A stretch of 64,000 bases of DNA from NCBI RefSeq assembly GCF_900112205.1, contig NZ_FOKW01000012.1, positions 1 to 64,000 of the forward strand, given 5' to 3'. The notes beneath the pieces were generated by a model. The model made no database searches. It had not been told where the DNA came from and saw only the letters and a program-made list of their open reading frames with translations. This document shows, in pieces, positions 24,677-50,348 of this stretch (the first letter of the stretch is position 1; each line of letters begins with the position of its first letter). The DNA is from Natronobacterium haloterrestre. GTDB taxonomy: Archaea > Halobacteriota > Halobacteria > Halobacteriales > Natrialbaceae. The position numbers and the translations under genes were made by a program.

Positions 24677-25606
24677 TCAGGCGTCGTCGTCGCGCGCGGC
24701 CAGCGGCACGCACCACACCGGCACGTCGACGGAACGGACGACCGACTCCGTGACGCTCCCGAGCAGGTGACGCTCGAGGCCCGAGCGCCCGTGGGTGCCG
24801 ATGGCGATCAGGTCGATCCCGTCGTCGGCGTAGTCACGGATCACGCGCGCTGGCGGCCCGTTCGCGACCGTTCCCTGAACGCTGACGCCGGCCTCCCGCG
24901 CCCGGTCCCGGACCGCGTCCAGAACTTCCCGTCCGGTCTCCTCGAGTCCGGCCAGGATCTCGTCGGGGGCGACGTTGCCGGGAACGTGACTCGTGTCCGC
25001 GGAGTACAGCGCGTGGACGGTGGCGTCGAACGCCGATGCCGTTTGGACCCCCCAGTCGACCGCGGCCATCGCCCCCTCGCTGCCGTCGGTCGGTAACAAC
25101 ACATCGTCGACGGTGTCGGCCGTCAGCGACGTCTCGGTTTCCGTCTCCGTCGGCGGGACGGCCAGTACGGGCACGTCGACGGTTCGCAGGACGTTCTCGG
25201 TGACGCTGCCCAGTAGCACGCGGCGCACGCCTGACTGCCCTTTCGTCCCCATCGCGACGGCGTCGATCCCGGCCTCCGCGACGTAGTCGGCGATGACGCG
25301 GTACGGCACCCCATCTTCGGTCGCGGTCGTGACCGAGAGCCCCGCGTCGCGCTCGCGCGCTCGCTGCGCGACGGCTTCGACGGCGGTTTCGGCCTCTGAG
25401 GCGGCGGCCTCGCGGATCCCTGCTTCGTCCGTCCCGTCTTCGAGCGTCCCGATCCCGTCGAACTCGGAGCCGTCGACGACCGAGAGGACGTGTACGTGTA
25501 CCTCCGCGTCGGCCGCGACCGCGACGTCGAGTCCGCGTTTCGCACCCACGAGTGCGTTCTCGCTGCCGTCCGTCGGGAGTAGTATCGAATCGATCGCGTC
25601 TCGCAT
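24677..25606 (-). CDS. tandem universal stress protein (two UspA domains)
   Basis: A 309-residue protein with two complete UspA domains. Both nucleotide motifs are intact: GTKGQSGVRRVLLGS in domain 1 and GTHGRSGLERHLLGS in domain 2. The linker after domain 1 is PPTETETETS. It belongs to a second tandem-Usp subfamily (ILLPTDGS and VLLPTDGS starts), distinct from the 9068/21539 pair. It is preceded 82 bp upstream by a related tandem Usp on the same strand, so the two may be an operon. Confidence 0.92.
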   Translation of the reverse strand: MRDAIDSILLPTDGSENALVGAKRGLDVAVAADAEVHVHVLSVVDGSEFDGIGTLEDGTDEAGIREAAASEAETAVEAVAQRARERDAGLSVTTATEDGVPYRVIADYVAEAGIDAVAMGTKGQSGVRRVLLGSVTENVLRTVDVPVLAVPPTETETETSLTADTVDDVLLPTDGSEGAMAAVDWGVQTASAFDATVHALYSADTSHVPGNVAPDEILAGLEETGREVLDAVRDRAREAGVSVQGTVANGPPARVIRDYADDGIDLIAIGTHGRSGLERHLLGSVTESVVRSVDVPVWCVPLAARDDDA

Positions 25607-25688
25607 CGCTAGCCCCTTCCCCGCGACGGCGAATAACAGTGGGGGGTGGTAATAGTGAAGGGCCGTGTTCGAACGACCCGGACGGCGG

Positions 25689-26597
25689 TTACGACGTGTC
25701 CGACTCGTCCTCGAGCGTTCGGGCCGTCAGCACGGGGACGCTCGCGTTCGGCACCACCCGCTGGGAGACGCTGCCGACGACGAGGCGCTCGACGTTCGAC
25801 TTGCTCTCGGTCCCCATCACGAGCAGGTCGACGTCGGTCCGGTCGACGTACTCGAGGATTACCTCCGTCGGCGGGCCGCGTTCGATCGCTTCGACGGTCT
25901 CGAGGCCGCGGTCGCCGGCCCGATCGGCTACGGCCGCCGTCGTCCGCTTCCCGTGTTCCTCGAACGCGTCCCGGAGCTTCGAGGGTCCGCTCCGGCGTTC
26001 GTCTCCGAGCGTATCGTCGTCGGCGTCGACCGCGTACAGCGCGTGCAGCCGGGCATCGCAGGCCTCGGCGAGCGAGAGCGCGCGGTCGGTCGCCGCGGCC
26101 GATCCGATCGAGCCGTCAGTGGCGAGACAGACCCCTTCGACGGCGTCGCCCTCGTCCACGGACGCGTTCTCGAGGTCGGGACCGCCGGAGCGCCGGGACG
26201 CCGCGCCGACCGTCATCACCGGCCGTTCGGCGTCCCGGATCACCTCGAGGGCGACGCTACCGAGCAGTGCCTGGCGCAGCCCGGTCCGGCCGTGTGTCCC
26301 CACGACGAGCAGGTCCGCGTCGATCGAGTCGGCGTATTCGCGGATCTCGTCGGCTGGCCGGCCGGTACGGACGGTGGCATCGGCTTTCCGACCCGCTTCC
26401 CTCGCGCGCGTCACGACCTCCTCCGCGGCGGCCTCGCGTCGATCACGTCGACGGCCGCTCCTGAACCCCTCTTCGACGACGGACAGGGCGCGAACGGACG
26501 CCTCGAGCGTTCGGGCCAGGGTGATCCCCGCGTCCGCGGCGTCCGCGGCCACGTCGCTCCCGTCGGTCGCGATGAGAACGTCGTCGTACTCGTACAT
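25689..26597 (-). CDS. tandem universal stress protein (two UspA domains)
   Basis: A 302-residue protein with two UspA domains. Domain 1 carries an intact motif GTHGRTGLRQALLGS. In domain 2 the motif is GTESKSNVERLVVGS, where Ser or Lys stands in place of the second Gly, so ATP binding there is doubtful. ATG 26597 (MYEYDDVLIATDGS) is chosen because the fold begins there. It is divergent from the CBS/HPF-like gene, with which it shares about 300 bp of upstream DNA. Confidence 0.9.
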   Translation of the reverse strand: MYEYDDVLIATDGSDVAADAADAGITLARTLEASVRALSVVEEGFRSGRRRDRREAAAEEVVTRAREAGRKADATVRTGRPADEIREYADSIDADLLVVGTHGRTGLRQALLGSVALEVIRDAERPVMTVGAASRRSGGPDLENASVDEGDAVEGVCLATDGSIGSAAATDRALSLAEACDARLHALYAVDADDDTLGDERRSGPSKLRDAFEEHGKRTTAAVADRAGDRGLETVEAIERGPPTEVILEYVDRTDVDLLVMGTESKSNVERLVVGSVSQRVVPNASVPVLTARTLEDESDTS

Positions 26598-26900
26598 GTA
26601 GACGGCTACGACGACCCGGATCTTTGCTCTGTTGCCCTGACCCACGATCGGCCGAACCCGCCGGAGACGGAGCGTCGATACCGGACGTCCGTGAACCGAT
26701 TCCGGTTGCGGCAACTCCGAGCCGGCGGGAACGACCGCCCGGGTATTTGGGACTCGGTATCGAACGCTCACGTGGAGGCGTCACTCGTCACTCGGAAGGG
26801 CACACCGTAGACCGAACTACCGGGTACTGACACCGAACGCCGACCATCGCGCATCGATCGTCGAACACAGCGCGGCACCGCGGACACGATACTCACAGCC
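26598..26900. other. 303 bp divergent spacer, Usp versus CBS gene
   Basis: No gene is supported. The CBS side carries CGATACTCACAGCC just before the ATG but no strong TATA box, and no clear palindrome was seen. Control of both genes from here is possible. Confidence 0.35.
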
Positions 26901-28133
26901 ATGAATATTGCCGATATCGTCTCGGAGGAGTACGTCGAATTCACCCCGGACACTACCGTCTCGAAGCTCGTCGGCACCTTCGCCGATACCGACGTCAAAG
27001 GTGTCGTGGTGCGAGGAGAGGACGAGTTCGAAGGAGTGGTCACGCGCCGACAGCTCGCCACGTCGCACCGGCAACCGAACGAAAAGCTCGGGTCGCTGGT
27101 CTGGCACGTCCCCAGGCTCGCCCCCGACGAGGACATCCGGAAGGTGGCACAGCTGATGATCGACACCGACTCACGCTTGCTCCCGGTCTTCGACGACCGG
27201 GAGTTGATCGGCGTCGTCACCGTCGACGACGTCCTCGAGAAGGTTCGCCCCTACCTGGACGCGGCGACCGTCGCCGACGCCTGCTCGACGGATCTCGTCG
27301 CGCTCGATCCGGAGTCGAGCCTCGGGGAGGCGCTGAACGTCTTCCGTGAGAACCGCATCACGCACCTGCCGGTCGTCGAAGACGGGTCGGCCGTCGGGAT
27401 CTGTAGCCTCTACGACGTGACGGATCTGACGGTCCGCGCCGAGGTCCAGAGCCAGGGCGGCGACGCCGGCGGCGTCGACCCCTTCGGCGGGGAGATTTCC
27501 TCGAGCATGGGCCGGACGCGCCGCGGCGGGTACGGCGCGCGGGAAGGCGAACTCGAGCGGATGCTCGATCTCCCGGTCCAGGACGTGATGGCGTCGCCGG
27601 TCCGGACGGTTGGGCCGTCCGAGACCCTCGATACGGCTGTCGACGAGATGTTCGAGATCGGCGCCTCGTCGCTCGTGGTGACCGATCCCGACGACCCCGA
27701 CGGGTCGCCGTCCGGGATCGTGACCAAGACCGACGTGCTCGACTCGCTCACCTGGGAGGCCGGCGGCAACCGGGCCGTACAGGTGTACGGCACGGACCTG
27801 ATCGACGACCTGACCTACGACGAGATCGTCGAGATGATCGAGACCTTCGACGATCGGGACGGCGGGATGAACCTCCTGGACGCGAAGGTCCACCTGCACG
27901 AACACGACGAGAAACGCCGGGGTCGACCACTCCTGCTCGCGCGCGTCCGTCTCCACACCGACCGGGGGCTGTACGTCGCCTCGGGCGAAGGGTTCGGAGC
28001 CAAACACGCGCTCAACGAGGCGCAGGACGTCCTCGAGCGGCAGATTCGCGACGAGAAGACCTACGGTCGCACGAAGAAGCCGCCGGGCGAGGAGTACTGG
28101 GAGAAGCGGTTCGGCTGGCTGCTCGAGGAGTAA
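26901..28133 (+). CDS. four-CBS protein with a C-terminal HPF/S30AE-like domain
   Basis: A 410-residue soluble protein. CBS motifs run from about residues 1-55, 65-120, 125-180 and 222-285, forming two Bateman pairs that usually sense adenine nucleotides. The C-terminal 80 residues (about 325-390) do not look like CBS. The pattern AKVHLHEH, then LLLARVRLHTDRGLYVASGEGFGAK, then HALNEAQDVLERQIRDEK follows the strand-strand-helix layout and basic-helix ending of ribosome hibernation-promoting factors. If so, it would couple energy sensing to ribosome silencing. The CBS part is certain; the HPF-like reading is my own comparison and needs a profile search. It sits among stress genes. Confidence 0.82.
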   Translation: MNIADIVSEEYVEFTPDTTVSKLVGTFADTDVKGVVVRGEDEFEGVVTRRQLATSHRQPNEKLGSLVWHVPRLAPDEDIRKVAQLMIDTDSRLLPVFDDRELIGVVTVDDVLEKVRPYLDAATVADACSTDLVALDPESSLGEALNVFRENRITHLPVVEDGSAVGICSLYDVTDLTVRAEVQSQGGDAGGVDPFGGEISSSMGRTRRGGYGAREGELERMLDLPVQDVMASPVRTVGPSETLDTAVDEMFEIGASSLVVTDPDDPDGSPSGIVTKTDVLDSLTWEAGGNRAVQVYGTDLIDDLTYDEIVEMIETFDDRDGGMNLLDAKVHLHEHDEKRRGRPLLLARVRLHTDRGLYVASGEGFGAKHALNEAQDVLERQIRDEKTYGRTKKPPGEEYWEKRFGWLLEE

Positions 28134-43746: not shown

Positions 43747-45204
43747 TTACGCGACCGCTTCGACCGGCTGCTCCGTCGGTTCTTCCGGCTCCTTCATGTA
43801 CATCTTCCACCCGGTGAAGCCCATGATGACGACCAGGATCGGCGACAGCAGTCCCACGAAGAAGTACGGGAGGTAGCTAAGCACGGGCACGCCCAGCGCG
43901 GCCGACATGAAGACGCCGCCGGAGTTCCACGGGATCATCGCCTCCGAGACGGTACCCGTCTCCTCGAGAGTCCGGGAGAGGCTCGTCCCGTCGAGGTCGT
44001 ACTCGTCGTGGAGGTCGCGGAACGTCATGCCCGGCACGACGATGGACATGTACTGGTCGGCCGTGAGGACGTTCATCAGGAGCGGACCGATGGCGGTTGC
44101 GAGCGTGGCGCTCCCGACGCCACGGACGGCTTTGGCGGTGTTGTGAGCGAGCACCGCCAGCACGCCGGTGATCTCCAGCAGGCCACCGATCGACAGGGCA
44201 CCGAAGACGATCGTGATAACCCAGATCGAGCCGTTGAGGCCACCGCTGGCGAGGAGTTCGTTGACGAGTTCGACGCCGGTTTCGGGACCGGTCCCGTAGT
44301 GGATGATATCCCACGCCTCGGCGAGTCCGCGTCCCTGGATGACGATCGAGACGGCGGCACCGGAGAACACGCCAGCACCGAGTGCCGGCAGTGCGGGATA
44401 GCCCGCTATCGCGAACCCGAACGTGATGATCAGGGGGACCAAAACGAGGATGGACAGTTCGTACGTGCCGGCGAGTGCGCCCTGAATTTCCGCGACCTGT
44501 CCGGCCGCATCGCCCCCGCTACTCGTATCGGCGGTGAGCCCGAGGATCGTGTACAGCACGAGCGATACGACGCCGATGATGATCGTGTTCGGGAACATCC
44601 CGCGAACGTGGTCCCACAGATCGACGTTACTGACACCGGACGCGAGCAGGGTGGTGTCCGACAGGGGCGACTGCTTGTCACCCATGTAGACGCCCGAGAG
44701 GATCGCACCCGCGGTCAACGGCTCGGGGATGCCGAGGCCGGCACCGATACCGACCAGTGCGATACCGAGCGAGCCAGCCGTGGTCCAGGAGGACCCGACC
44801 GCCGTGGCGACCACGAACGAAAGGAGTGCGGCAAGCGGGACGAAGACGCTCGGCGTGAGGAACTCGAGCCCCCAGTACATGATGAAGGGGATCGTCCCGG
44901 CGTCGATCCACGAGGCGATCAACATGTAAATCACGAAGAGGATGAAGATCGCCCCGAGTCCCATCACGATGCTGTTCGAAATACCGTCGAAGAGCTCGTC
45001 CCACGAGTATCCCCAGCGATATCGTGCGATGAGCCCGATAAAGGCAATCCCCCAGAGCAGGGGCATCTGTGCGTCGAGCCCGAGATAGACGATACCGACG
45101 GCCAGGAACGTGATCATCCCGGCTATCGGTAACAGTGCTTCACCGAACGACGGTCGCCGTTCGGGATCGAAATCCTCGTAACTTTTCGGTTCGAAATCTA
45201 CCAT
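43747..45204 (-). CDS. arcD: NhaC-family antiporter, probable arginine/ornithine exchanger
   Basis: A 485-residue membrane transporter with about eleven helices of the NhaC Na+/H+ antiporter family. The family core [31 protein letters not shown] and [15 protein letters not shown] are present. In haloarchaeal arginine fermentation loci an NhaC-type protein takes the place of the bacterial ArcD exchanger, importing arginine for ornithine; that assignment rests on location. ATG 45204 is chosen. A gap of 621 bp separates it from arcB, so it is probably transcribed on its own. Confidence 0.8.
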
Positions 45205-45825
45205 TGTGATTACCTGTTGTTTCGGTGAGGTGGTTACTGATCGGTTCGCCGTCACTTACGACGCTCTGATCAGGGTCTCGTTGCCTACACTTCGGTCTTT
45301 ATCTCAGACTAGGATAAAACTACCGCTGATTCCTATTCCTGTAGGTAGTAATTCCCAATAATAATCCCTCAGGGTCCATCAGAACGGCTCTGCTTGGCAC
45401 ACACTCTCTCACAGGGCGAGCATCGATCACGACGCCTTTCGATATCAGTAGCTGATAGATATATATTAACGTGCGGTAATTGTGTAGGATCGGGCAGGAG
45501 TTCGAGTTCCCTCTAGGGACGGCGATGGACGACGACACCAATCGTTTCGGTTCTCGAGAGTGTCCGTGCCCCCTCGAGAGCAGTGTCGTGGCGCGTGCCG
45601 TCCCAGCGACGGACCGTCTCAGAGACACACTGGGAGTTCGGTGTGGTCCAGTCGGTCCTCGGTCGTGAGAGCGAATCGCCAAAGTCGAAAGTGGGTACCG
45701 GGTTCGAAGGGCTCCGTGCCGTGGCTACACACGACGCGCGCTGTAGCCGAAAAGCGGGTTAGGGATGGATGTCGACGCGTTTTGTTTCGACCGCTTCCGT
45801 CGGTGTTCGAGGGGACGATCCGGAC
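45205..45825. other. 621 bp gap between arcB and arcD
   Basis: No confident gene. AT-rich from about 45300 to 45480, with a perfect TATCAG-TAG-CTGATA palindrome at 45443-45457 followed by ATATATATTAAC, a plausible promoter with operator. A minus-strand frame (45320-45682) has short stretches that look vaguely coding (VVIDARPVREC, then AVLMDPEGLLL), so part of the gap may be a decayed gene. Confidence 0.4.
45443..45457. promoter_or_regulatory. 15 bp palindrome in the arcB-arcD gap
   Basis: TATCAG-TAG-CTGATA has perfect 6 bp arms and lies beside the AT-rich ATATATATTAAC. It is about 240 bp upstream of the arcD start and may be an operator for a separate transcript. Confidence 0.4.
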
Positions 45826-46713
45826 TTATTCGTTGACCAGCGTATGGAGGATGGCTTTCTGGACGTGCATGCGGTTTTCGGCCTGGTCGAAGATCACCGA
45901 CTGGGGACCGTCAGCGACCTCAGCCGTAACCTCCTCGCCACGGTGGGCCGGGAGGCAGTGCATGAAGACGGCGTCGTCGCGAGCAGCGTCCATGAGATCC
46001 TGGTCGACCTGGAAGCCGTCGAACTCGGCGAGTTTCTCCTCGCGCTCGTCTTCCTCGCCCATGCTGACGAAGACGTCGCTGTAGACGGCGGTCGCGCCGT
46101 CGACTGCCTCGTACGGGTCGTTGGTGACCGTCACGTCAGCATCGCTGACGCGTTCCTGGATCTCCTCGTCGGGCTCCATACCTTCGGGAGTGGCGATGCG
46201 ACAGTCGACGTCCATCTTTGCGGACGCCTGCATCAGCGAGTGGGCGACGTTGTTCCCGTCGCCAACGAACGCGATCGTGTCGAGACGGTCCTTTTCGTGG
46301 AGGGTGTACAGGTCGGTCAGAGCCTGACACGGGTGGAGGAGGTCAGTCAGTCCGTTGACGACCGGAACGTCGGCGTGTTCGGCGAGTTCGATCATCTCCT
46401 CGTGATCGAACAGGCGGGCCATGATAGCGTCCTCGTAGCGAGACATGACCTGGCTGACGTCCGAGATGGGCTCCCCGCGGCTGAGCTGAGAGGACCCCAT
46501 CTCGAAGAAGATGCCGTGGCCGCCGAGCTGGGTCATTCCCGTCTCGAAGGACAGGCGCGTCCGCGTCGACGGCTTCGCGAACAGCATCACGAGGGTCTTG
46601 TTGTCCATCACGGAGGAGAACTCGTCGGGGTTCTCCTTCATCTCGTCGGTCAGTTCGAACAATTGTTCGATCTCTTCGGTCTCGATGTCGTTGATGTCTA
46701 TCAGGTGCTGCAT
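45826..46713 (-). CDS. arcB: ornithine carbamoyltransferase (catabolic)
   Basis: A 295-residue enzyme that phosphorolyses citrulline to ornithine and carbamoyl phosphate in arginine fermentation. The carbamoyl phosphate loop AKPSTRTRLSFETGMTQLGG, the ornithine motif TDLLHPCQALTDLYT and the C-terminal HCLPAHRGEEVT are all present. It has its own TATA-like TATTTAATT at 46738-46746, 25-33 nt upstream. It lies 56 bp after arcC. The same fold could serve arginine synthesis; the neighbours argue for the catabolic direction. Confidence 0.93.
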   Translation of the reverse strand: MQHLIDINDIETEEIEQLFELTDEMKENPDEFSSVMDNKTLVMLFAKPSTRTRLSFETGMTQLGGHGIFFEMGSSQLSRGEPISDVSQVMSRYEDAIMARLFDHEEMIELAEHADVPVVNGLTDLLHPCQALTDLYTLHEKDRLDTIAFVGDGNNVAHSLMQASAKMDVDCRIATPEGMEPDEEIQERVSDADVTVTNDPYEAVDGATAVYSDVFVSMGEEDEREEKLAEFDGFQVDQDLMDAARDDAVFMHCLPAHRGEEVTAEVADGPQSVIFDQAENRMHVQKAILHTLVNE

Positions 46714-46737
46714 CGTTTTGTATTTCCTGTGGTTGTG

Positions 46738-46746
46738 TATTTAATT
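46738..46746 (-). promoter_or_regulatory. TATA box of arcB
   Basis: Read on the minus strand, AATTAAATA sits 25-33 nt before the arcB ATG, giving arcB its own leaderless promoter although arcC ends only 56 bp upstream. Confidence 0.5.
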
Positions 46747-46769
46747 CTTTGGCTATTCCCACCTGCTAG

Positions 46770-47693
46770 TTATCGATCCGCCGGGACGACCGTCGTCCCG
46801 GTTTCCCCCTCGAGTGCCTCCGTGGCGGTTTCCGGTGCCGTAATAACCGCCCGATCGCCGCCGTTCTCGACGAACTCGATACACGCCTCGACTTTCGGTG
46901 CCATACTCCCTTCACCGAACTCGCCGGCCTCGAGGAGTTCGGCCGCCTCGTCGGCGGTGAGCTCGTCGAGTCGTTCCTGGTCGTCGGTCCCGAAGTTCCG
47001 GTAGACGGCTTCGACGTCGGTCAACACCAGGAAGTCGTCCGCACCGATATCGGTGGCAAGTACCTGTGCGGCGCGGTCCTTGTCGATGACGGCTTCGATC
47101 CCTGTCAGCCCGCCGTTGTCTTCCACGACGGGAACGCCGCCACCGCCGACGCTAATGACTGGCTTGCCGGTCTCCACGAGCGTTCGGATGCGGTCCGACT
47201 CGACGATCTCGATCGGCTGGGGGGACGGAACGACGCGCCGGTAGCCGACCTCGCCGTTACCGTTCGTGTCCTCCTTGACCGGGAAGTCCTTCGCTTCGGC
47301 CTCGGCTTCGTCGTAGAACGGACCGATCCGCTTCGTGGGATCGTCGAACGCCGGATCGTCCCCGTCGACGAGCGTCTGCGTGATGACGGTCGCGGGGGTT
47401 TCCCCGAGGTCCTCGCGGAGTTGCTGCTGGAGAAGGTAGCCGATCTGTGCCTGCGATTCAGCGCCGAGGACGTCGAGCGGCTTCTCCCCGACGGAGTCCG
47501 ACTCCTCGTTCTGGAGGAGCAACTGTCCGACCTGCGGACCGTTGCCGTGAGTGAAGACGAGTTCGTGCCCGCGCTCGTGAAGATCGACGAAGTGTGGGAC
47601 AGTCTCCCGAATCGTCTCTCGCTGATCTTCGATCGATCCTTCGCCACCTCTGAGTAGGGCGTTCCCACCCAGAGCTACGACTGTATAGCTCAT
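46770..47693 (-). CDS. arcC: carbamate kinase
   Basis: A 307-residue kinase making ATP from ADP and carbamoyl phosphate, the energy-yielding step of arginine fermentation. The N-terminal VVALGGNALLRGG and FTHGNGPQVGQLLLQ motifs and the central VISVGGGGVPVV are signature segments of the amino acid kinase family in its carbamate kinase form. A 302 bp gap with an AT-rich AAGAGTTTTC box separates it from arcA, so a separate promoter is likely. Confidence 0.95.
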   Translation of the reverse strand: MSYTVVALGGNALLRGGEGSIEDQRETIRETVPHFVDLHERGHELVFTHGNGPQVGQLLLQNEESDSVGEKPLDVLGAESQAQIGYLLQQQLREDLGETPATVITQTLVDGDDPAFDDPTKRIGPFYDEAEAEAKDFPVKEDTNGNGEVGYRRVVPSPQPIEIVESDRIRTLVETGKPVISVGGGGVPVVEDNGGLTGIEAVIDKDRAAQVLATDIGADDFLVLTDVEAVYRNFGTDDQERLDELTADEAAELLEAGEFGEGSMAPKVEACIEFVENGGDRAVITAPETATEALEGETGTTVVPADR

Positions 47694-47995
47694 GGGTACT
47701 TGGAACTCTCTCCAGGTAGCAGAAAACTCTTATGCTGATTCTCAGGCGTCGGTGTGACGAACGTTCGCAGGACGTGTGAGTAGCCCGAGTACAGATACTG
47801 TGCCGTCACAGGGGCGTTTTGGCTTCCCGTGACGTCGAAGGCTACTGGACGTCCGAAGCCCGGTAGGGCAGAACAAAAACGAGCGGCTGCGCCGCGGTCG
47901 CAAAGAACGGCGACCGAGTAGCGGCGCAGGGATCACGACGAACGCAGCCGAGGGGGACACCGGCGACCGTGCCTCTGACGTTGCTCGATGAGACG
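47694..47995. other. 302 bp gap between arcA and arcC
   Basis: No gene is supported. Only the arcC-proximal 40 bp look like a promoter. The middle contains GC-rich short repeats around GGCTGCGCCGCGGTCG and GTAGCGGCGCAGG that could fold, so an mRNA processing or termination structure between arcA and arcC is possible. Confidence 0.35.
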
Positions 47996-49456
47996 TTACT
48001 CCGGAACGCGACGGAGCGGCGTCGTCATGCAGTGAATCGCACCGTATCCTGCCCGGAGATTGATGATCTTCCGACCTTCGCCGTCGGGAACGACCGTCAC
48101 GTCGTAGTCCTCCTGCAGCCCCGTCACGAACTGCCGCATGACGCAGTCGTCGTCCTCCGAGAAGCGGACGGGGAGGATCTTACGGGGGCCGAGCGTCAGG
48201 AAGTTCGTGATCGCCTTCAGTGCCGTGTCGACGTCCGGATGGTCCGGATCGACGTAGTCGTAGACGTCGACGATCTCGAAGCCCTTCTCACGCAGGTAAT
48301 CGCCGAAGTTCACGTCCGGTCGATCCAGGACGTACGGCTTCTCTTCGTCCTCGACTCGCCGATACACGTCGAGAGTCGTGTTGTCCACGAGCTCCTTGTG
48401 GGCCACGGCGAGGTCCTCGTCGACGAAGTTGAACCACGTGTCGAGGTGCATGATGTCCATCTCGACTTCGCCGTTGTCGTCGTCCTTGTTCTCCTGAGCG
48501 GCTTCGAACGGTGCGCGAACGAGTCCGACTTCCGACGTCCCGAACGCGTCGTCCATCAGGAGGCGATGGCCGGCCGCGTAACTGGTCCGGTGGACGTATT
48601 CGGTATCGTCCTCCGCGATGTCATGTTCCGGATACGCAGTGCCTTCCGGAACCTTCGCCGAGACCCCGAGGAGCGAGAACTCGCCGGCGGGATAGAAGTC
48701 GCCGCCTTCGACGAGCACTTCGGTCGACTGGATGTCGTCACGTTCCGGAACGTATTCGGTGACGTCGTGTTCGTGCACCTGGGACATGTCCGCGACGATA
48801 TCGACGTCGAACTGGTTCCCGTCGAGAGCCTTCCAGGATGCGCGAGCGATGTCGACCTCGGGCTTGCGCGTGTCCTCTTTCATCGAACAGAGGACGACCC
48901 CGTTCTTGGTGACGAACTGCTGGTCCCGCTGGAAGTACATGTTCGTAAGCGGCTGTTCCAGTTGGACGCTCGTCGTGTCCCAGCGGTCGGGGTTCGACCC
49001 GGGGACGTCCTCCTCGGCGTCGGCCCGATGGCGAATGACCTTCGCATTGCTCAGGACGGCCTGCATCTGTGTATGCGGGTTGAGCTCGTGCAGTCGCGAC
49101 CACAATTCGTCCCGCCGATTCACCCGGACCTCCTCCTCGAGTTCGCTGAGATCGAAGTCGACACGCGACGAGAGCAGCGCGCTCATCCCGCCGCCGTTGG
49201 CGAGGTCGTCGTGGAGGTAGTGGATCGGGTCGTCAACGGGCAGCGCTTCCTCGAGGTCCCGGGAGAGGCTGAGATGTTCCTGTTGGGCCTCGACGAGCGA
49301 GAAGTCGTCGAGGAAAAGGTTCGGTTCGGGGTCCATGATCCCGACGAACGTTTCGGTACCCGGAAGATGCATCCGAACCGCCTGTAGTGGGTCCCACTCG
49401 GCGGTAGCCTGTACTTTCGGGAGGTCGTCCGTGTGCTTCGGGGATTGATTACTCAT
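47996..49456 (-). CDS. arcA: arginine deiminase
   Basis: A 486-residue enzyme hydrolysing arginine to citrulline and ammonia. Arginine/guanidino-modifying features are MHLPGTETFVG near the N-terminus, EGGDFYPAGEFSLLGVS, MHLDTWFNFVDEDLA and the nucleophilic Cys476 in GAIHCMTTPLRRV. It is longer than the usual bacterial enzyme (about 410 residues), with acidic insertions as in halophilic relatives. An upstream AT-rich stretch (TTTACATACTTG on the minus strand) and a palindrome at 49501-49515 lie between it and arcR. Confidence 0.95.
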   Translation of the reverse strand: MSNQSPKHTDDLPKVQATAEWDPLQAVRMHLPGTETFVGIMDPEPNLFLDDFSLVEAQQEHLSLSRDLEEALPVDDPIHYLHDDLANGGGMSALLSSRVDFDLSELEEEVRVNRRDELWSRLHELNPHTQMQAVLSNAKVIRHRADAEEDVPGSNPDRWDTTSVQLEQPLTNMYFQRDQQFVTKNGVVLCSMKEDTRKPEVDIARASWKALDGNQFDVDIVADMSQVHEHDVTEYVPERDDIQSTEVLVEGGDFYPAGEFSLLGVSAKVPEGTAYPEHDIAEDDTEYVHRTSYAAGHRLLMDDAFGTSEVGLVRAPFEAAQENKDDDNGEVEMDIMHLDTWFNFVDEDLAVAHKELVDNTTLDVYRRVEDEEKPYVLDRPDVNFGDYLREKGFEIVDVYDYVDPDHPDVDTALKAITNFLTLGPRKILPVRFSEDDDCVMRQFVTGLQEDYDVTVVPDGEGRKIINLRAGYGAIHCMTTPLRRVPE

Positions 49457-49535: not shown

Positions 49536-50324
49536 TTACTCTGTCTCTATTTTCACTTCGATGATGTTTGCAGCTTCCATCACCAGCTCCGGCACCTCGT
49601 CCGTAAACTGTGCGTTCTGCAGGCGAGTTTTCGGTGCGGTGACGCTGACGGCACCCGCGACGGCTTCCCCCGGACCACGGACCGGTGCACCGATGGACCT
49701 GGTCCCGCGGATCTCCTCTTCGTCGTTGACCGCGTACCCCCGTTCGCGGATCTCCGCCAGTTGCTCGCGGAGCGTTCCCCGATCGGAGATCGCGTTGGAA
49801 TCGTCGTCGAACTCCGTCCGCGCGATCAACTCGTCCCGACGCTCCTCGGGAAGAAACGCGAGTATGGACTTGCCGGCCGCGCTCGTGTAGAGTTGGCGCG
49901 GAGTTTCTCGCATCCTGAGGTGGTAGTCGCTGGTCACCGCGTCTTCCCCCATCGCTTCGTAGAGTACGATCTGGTCCCCGTTCGATTCGGTGACCAGGTG
50001 AGCGGTGTGACGGGTCTGGTCGGCCAGTTCGTCGATTTCGTCCCGCCCGATCCGATAGAGGTCGGTGTTGTTACGTGCGTAGTTCGAGATGGGAATGACC
50101 CAGTACCCGATCTGGTAGGCACCGTCGTCCTCCTGTGTTACGATCCCCTCCTGGCGAAGCGTCGCCAGGTACGTGTATATCGTCGATTTCGTCAGTTCCA
50201 GGTCGTCGGTGAGTTCCTGTAACGTGGCGCCTCGCCTGTCTTTGATCGCGTGAACGATGTCGATCGCTTTGTGAACGGATTTGATCTGGCGGGGTTCGTC
50301 CGCGTCCGACGTGTCCGGTTTCAT
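49536..50324 (-). CDS. arcR: IclR-type regulator of the arc locus
   Basis: A 262-residue IclR-family regulator. A winged helix at about residues 10-75 (KSVHKAIDIVHAIKDRRGATLQELTDDLELTKSTIYTYLATL region) is followed by the effector domain with the typical YTSAAGKSILAFLPEE and EEIRGTRSIGAPVRG. It stands directly upstream of arcA on the same strand, as in haloarchaeal arcRACB loci, and probably controls them. ATG 50324 is preferred. TATA-like CTTATACT (50349-50356) lies at leaderless distance. Confidence 0.9.
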   Translation of the reverse strand: MKPDTSDADEPRQIKSVHKAIDIVHAIKDRRGATLQELTDDLELTKSTIYTYLATLRQEGIVTQEDDGAYQIGYWVIPISNYARNNTDLYRIGRDEIDELADQTRHTAHLVTESNGDQIVLYEAMGEDAVTSDYHLRMRETPRQLYTSAAGKSILAFLPEERRDELIARTEFDDDSNAISDRGTLREQLAEIRERGYAVNDEEEIRGTRSIGAPVRGPGEAVAGAVSVTAPKTRLQNAQFTDEVPELVMEAANIIEVKIETE

Positions 50325-50348
50325 ATTCGAACGCACGCAGAGTAGCAT

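What the first reader, a model, noticed from the sequence alone, without database searches (positions are those of the whole stretch)
26901..28133. Four-CBS protein fused to a hibernation-factor-like domain
Residues about 325-390 after the CBS repeats follow the strand, strand, helix layout and basic-helix ending of HPF/S30AE ribosome hibernation domains. A nucleotide-sensing CBS module joined to a ribosome-silencing domain would make a direct energy-to-translation switch, well placed in a stress island. The CBS part is clear; the HPF-like part is my own visual comparison.
Basis: partly seen in the sequence, partly recalled or inferred. Interest (0 to 1): 0.7.

Follow-up and report, generated by a model that had tools for sequence, protein, structure and literature searches.

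The report
Haloarchaeal HibA-type ribosome hibernation factor

Summary
[quoted passage not shown] The Pfam S30AE match alone is weak, but a fold search with a model of this domain gives only HPF/RaiA/YfiA at the top. The protein is a haloarchaeal member of HibA, an archaeal ribosome hibernation family published in April 2026 (PMC13324472). A 71%-identical protein is a chain of four PDB entries that also hold a haloarchaeal-type ribosomal protein uL2 (9L96, 9L98, 9L9C, 9L9V).

Beyond the published text I read: Halobacteria carry one near-universal core HibA (short loop, usually near radB) plus patchy accessory paralogues, of which the window gene is one. All accessory copies sampled have an insertion, usually 18-25 residues, rich in Gly with a conserved Arg, at the position of the loop that enters the peptidyl-transferase centre in P. 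abyssi HibA. They form one branch of the tree and often sit in universal-stress-protein islands: 22 of the genome's 75 Usp domains lie in this window.

The parts
26901..28133 (+). hibA-type gene (accessory, long-loop class A), 410 aa
   Evidence: ORF; full-length 71% identity to PDB 9l96_a, E 1e-195; orthologues 57-99% identical
26901..27434 (+). CBS repeats of the N-terminal side (residues 1-178)
   Evidence: Pfam PF00571, four stretches in the protein; model elements
27435..27548 (+). extended loop, residues 179-216 (RAEVQSQGGDAGGVDPFGGEISSSMGRTRRGGYGAREG), at the position of the P. abyssi HibA PTC loop; 37 residues in the counted stretch (180-216) here against 10-12 in core and other archaeal HibA
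   Evidence: alignment, loop lengths, G186 G187 G210 G212 R214 G216 invariant in 77 long-loop proteins; low pLDDT at 179-215, i.e. no fixed fold predicted when free
27549..27761 (+). last CBS repeat with intact T275/D278 nucleotide-site motif (GIVTKTD)
   Evidence: Pfam CBS; T275 and D278 invariant in classes A, B and core
27762..28130 (+). HPF/RaiA (S30AE-like) C-terminal domain, residues 288-410, core 293-387
   Evidence: PF02482 sub-threshold; model; Foldseek to 1l4s, 4v4g, 1imu, 4v8i, 6h4n, 4hei; E337, R340-G341, E363, G366, E379-R380 shared with P. abyssi and methanogens
24677..26771 (-). two double-Usp proteins directly upstream (24677-25606 and 25689-26771), part of the Usp island at 9.1-54.3 kb
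   Evidence: Pfam PF00582; 22 of 75 genome Usp domains lie in the window

Best explanation
The gene encodes an accessory, stress-island HibA: a ribosome hibernation factor. Inferred from P. abyssi HibA: the HPF/RaiA domain would sit in the mRNA/tRNA channel of the small subunit, and the four-CBS module would occupy vacant tRNA sites on the large subunit, so that the idle ribosome cannot translate and is protected from breakdown. Inferred for this class: the enlarged Gly-rich loop with a conserved Arg enters the peptidyl-transferase centre more deeply than the short loop of the core paralogue and gives stronger large-subunit binding. The CBS module probably binds adenine nucleotides; what the nucleotide does is unknown. 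Shown here: domain makeup, family membership by sequence and fold, paralogue structure, conserved loop insertion, Usp-island setting, and co-occurrence of a class-A protein with a haloarchaeal-type uL2 in four PDB entries. Not shown here: ribosome binding of this very protein, the loop's position, and any regulation. The confidence is for 'HibA-family hibernation factor'; for the loop's deeper reach into the peptidyl-transferase centre it is about 0.5.
For: Full-length 71% identical chain in 9l96/9l98/9l9c/9l9v, and the same entries hold a haloarchaeal-type uL2. P. abyssi HibA matches over CBS and HPF parts (E 1.3e-28). HPF fold. HibA biology: 70S cryo-EM, translation inhibition in vitro, deletion lowers 70S and delays regrowth in T. 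barophilus (PMC13324472). One branch holds all 67 long-loop rows and none of the 32 short-loop rows, with loop columns left out of the tree (SH-aLRT 93). Loop residues invariant in 77 proteins. Usp domains per 20 kb: class A 4.7, core 0.25; Fisher P 0.0004.
Against: PF02482 score is below its cut-off. The PDB entries' paper and coordinates could not be read. uS7 and uS12 chains of those entries were not found, so the HPF-domain/30S contact may not be what was seen there. Species relatedness weakens the Fisher P-value. P. abyssi data show no clear nucleotide effect.
Confidence: 0.9

Rival explanations
1. Large-subunit specialist: the accessory HibA acts mainly on free 50S subunits, plugging the peptidyl-transferase centre with its long loop, while the core HibA handles 70S. 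The HPF domain then adds 30S binding only secondarily.
For: The entries with class-A HibA and uL2 yield no haloarchaeal uS7 or uS12 chain; long conserved loop only in accessory classes.
Against: HPF-domain signature residues are fully conserved in class A; a 50S-only deposit may reflect subunit splitting during preparation or focused refinement; coordinates not read.
Confidence: 0.25
2. Direct energy switch: AMP/ATP binding to the CBS module sets whether the protein engages ribosomes.
For: CBS nucleotide motifs S169/D172 and T275/D278 conserved; P. abyssi CBS module binds AMP > ADP > ATP (PMC13324472); fold close to AMPK gamma.
Against: Neither AMP nor ATP clearly changed ribosome binding in reconstitution.
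Confidence: 0.2
3. Not a ribosome factor: a general CBS regulator whose HPF-like domain has been reused, e.g. for RNA or protein binding in the Usp stress response.
For: Haloferax HVO_2384, a CBS protein with a hibernation-factor domain, co-purified with an inactive Pat2 acetyltransferase variant (PMC12607858); Thermococcales HibA pull-downs with DNA factors; sub-threshold PF02482 score.
Against: Co-occurrence of a 71% identical chain with uL2 in four PDB entries; conserved HibA motif set; published HibA-ribosome complexes.
Confidence: 0.05

Closest known systems
HibA of Pyrococcus abyssi (PDB 9sr9 and others; PMC13324472)
   Same: Four CBS repeats plus C-terminal HPF/RaiA domain, same order and similar length; alignable over both parts; shared HPF-domain motif residues
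   Different: Loop at the PTC position 37 residues in the counted stretch against 12; accessory paralogue in a Usp island; distant in sequence
Class-A HibA chain a of PDB 9l96/9l98/9l9c/9l9v
   Same: 71% identical over full length, same long loop; groups with Haloferax profundi (SH-aLRT 99)
   Different: Another species; no paper found
Core haloarchaeal HibA (own genome G000:C29:23069-24166; by its reported mass Haloferax HVO_2384 is probably of this type)
   Same: Same architecture
   Different: About 34% identical, short loop, nearly universal, usually near radB rather than Usp genes
Dri (Pyrobaculum) and Sri proteins (Methanosarcina), CBS proteins in archaeal ribosome structures
   Same: CBS modules bound to archaeal ribosomes (entry titles; Dri also in PMC13324472)
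   Different: Dri has two CBS modules and no HPF domain; the Sri chains found are about 270-340 aa, too short for a four-CBS module plus HPF domain
Bacterial HPF/RaiA (YfiA)
   Same: C-terminal fold
   Different: No CBS module; HibA has archaeal insertions in the domain (PMC13324472)

Membership tests
HibA | N-terminal module of four tandem CBS domains | tested here: met
   PF00571, 4 stretches, E 4e-37
[quoted passage not shown]
   Model and Foldseek; Pfam match is sub-threshold only
HibA | Sequence relationship to P. abyssi HibA over both parts | tested here: met
   phmmer E 1.3e-28, two stretches covering CBS and HPF parts
HibA | Loop that reaches the peptidyl-transferase centre | tested here: inconclusive
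   Loop present and longer than in P. abyssi; its position on the ribosome was not testable here
HibA | Binds ribosomes, inhibits translation, preserves 70S | not testable with these tools
   Only indirect: a 71% identical chain shares PDB entries with uL2
HibA | CBS module binds adenine nucleotides | tested here: inconclusive
   Motif residues S169/D172 and T275/D278 conserved; binding itself not testable
Ribosomal_S30AE (PF02482) | Score over curated cut-off 23.7 bits | tested here: not met
   15.2-17.7 bits; core paralogue's domain 24.5 bits
Dri | Two CBS modules, no HPF domain | tested here: not met
   One four-CBS module plus HPF domain

The most novel reading that the evidence does not exclude
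Halobacteria run two kinds of HibA: a near-universal short-loop core form linked to the radB region, and stress-island long-loop forms whose conserved Gly-rich, Arg-bearing loop fills the peptidyl-transferase centre and perhaps the entrance of the exit tunnel, letting them guard free large subunits as well as 70S.
Probability: 0.3. Interest if true: 0.65.

Novelty: new variant of a known kind. Interest (0 to 1): 0.42.

Why it matters
It places ribosome hibernation inside haloarchaeal stress islands and offers a natural pair (short-loop core, long-loop accessory) with which to test what the peptidyl-transferase-centre loop and the CBS nucleotide site do. Haloferax, which has relatives of these genes, is genetically tractable, so the question can be tested.

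Tried and rejected
NCBIfam hits of the whole protein (PrdR, IMP dehydrogenase and others) are generic CBS matches far below their cut-offs. Papers on entries 9l94-9l9v: none found. A search for core-type HibA in PDB used the wrong strand and is void. The viral fold library gave nothing at E <= 0.001. aRDF was considered as a relative and set aside: no CBS or HPF part is described for it. Promoters were not analysed.

Full report
What is there. The ORF at 26901-28133 (+) encodes 410 residues. Its start agrees with orthologues. Pfam finds four CBS stretches (E 4e-37) and a weak S30AE match at residues 325-387 (E 0.036; 0.0078 for the C-terminal part alone; below the cut-off). In the whole genome no other stretch matches PF02482 better.

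Is the HPF likeness real? The domain folded alone from a single sequence gives pLDDT 77 and the order E-H-E-E-E-H. Foldseek against PDB: the nine matches with E <= 0.001 are protein Y/YfiA/RaiA/HPF structures (1l4s, 4v4g, 1imu, 4v8i, 6h4n, 4y4o, 4hei). The full-length model (23 sequences, pLDDT 71.5) shows the same elements, and its CBS part resembles AMPK gamma and archaeal ribosome-bound CBS proteins. A profile of archaeal C-terminal domains ranks E. coli RaiA first (E 0.0003) and HPF second (E 0.003) among the translated frames of 18 kb of E. coli DNA. The shared run (TDRGLYVASGEGFGAKHALNEAQDVLERQI here, [30 protein letters not shown] in RaiA) speaks for homology.

What it is. PDB chain 9l96_a (also in 9l98, 9l9c, 9l9v) is 71% identical over the whole length. 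Those four entries also contain a uL2 chain that matches this genome's uL2 at 447 bits, second only to the other haloarchaeal-type group (1s72 and kin) and far above other archaea (316 bits or less). No uS12 or uS7 chain of these entries appears in the searches, so the modelled particle may be a large subunit. The P. abyssi chain 9sr9_H matches over both parts. P. abyssi HibA is described in PMC13324472: HPF/RaiA domain in the 30S channel, CBS module at the peptidyl-transferase centre (PTC), uL5 or the L1 stalk, translation inhibition in vitro, and loss of 70S and delayed regrowth on deletion in T. barophilus. The window protein therefore belongs to HibA.

What differs. Halobacteria have a core HibA (own genome C29:23069-24166, about 34% identical to the window protein). 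All but one of 242 genomes of the class have a clear HibA-like match (best E 1e-30 or better; the exception is G166). The window type (class A) is patchy: by my count at E < 1e-140, 25 of 61 genomes sampled in the family and 38 of 242 in the class. A further set (class B, mostly 43-53% identical) exists; two genomes carry A and B about 8-11 kb apart. All A and B proteins sampled have a longer loop where P. abyssi HibA has its PTC loop: 23-37 residues in the counted stretch against 10-12 in core, methanogen and P. abyssi proteins. G186, G187, G210, G212, R214 and G216 are invariant in 77 long-loop proteins. With the loop columns left out, the long-loop proteins still form one side of a branch (SH-aLRT 93; quick search, root on a long branch). 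The text of the HibA paper does not discuss haloarchaeal paralogues; its supplements could not be read.

Setting. The window holds 22 of the genome's 75 Usp domain matches, where 1.07 is expected. In 20-kb stretches, class A has Usp domains in 16 of 20 (mean 4.7), class B in 11 of 20 (3.45), core in 4 of 20 (0.25); A against core P 0.0004, ignoring relatedness. Neighbours include an HSP20, a P-type ATPase and a PAC2 protein; an arginine-fermentation gene set (ArcD, ornithine carbamoyltransferase, carbamate kinase, a weak arginine deiminase match) lies about 16-21 kb downstream. The core gene instead lies within about 6 kb of radB in 18 of 20 loci, and none of 20 class A loci shows radB.

Mechanism. 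Shown for a relative: ribosome binding and silencing by HibA. Shown here: membership, loop, setting. Inferred: the long loop reaches deeper into the PTC. Unknown: the role of nucleotides. The CBS motif residues S169/D172 and T275/D278 are conserved, which fits binding of adenine nucleotides, but in P. abyssi AMP or ATP did not clearly change ribosome binding.

Verdict. The kind is known since 2026; the long-loop, stress-island paralogue is a variant that the text I could read does not describe, although a close relative is already in the PDB.

Noticed in passing
G000:C29:20000-27000 (L099); core loci L143-L162: The core haloarchaeal hibA lies within about 6 kb of radB in 18 of 20 loci (often adjacent and convergent), while 20 class A loci show none. 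The HibA paper cites pull-downs linking HibA to recombination and replication factors in Thermococcales.
   Followed up: partly
window 9077-54266: 22 Usp domain matches in one 45-kb stretch, 29% of all found in the 4.5-Mb genome.
   Followed up: partly
window 43747-49456 (-): Arginine-fermentation gene set: ArcD-type antiporter, ornithine carbamoyltransferase, carbamate kinase and a protein with only a weak arginine deiminase match (49 bits against a cut-off of 414), followed by an IclR-type regulator at 49536-50348.
   Followed up: no
PDB 9l94-9l9v (not in the window): Eight entries share one haloarchaeal-type uL2 chain; four of them also hold a class-A HibA. No paper was found and no uS7 or uS12 chain appeared, so they may be large-subunit structures.
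   Followed up: partly
G115:C1:1233227-1233871: A class-A match that covers only residues 191-410 (77% identical, open frame 293 aa): possibly a truncated hibA with one CBS repeat and the HPF domain.
   Followed up: no
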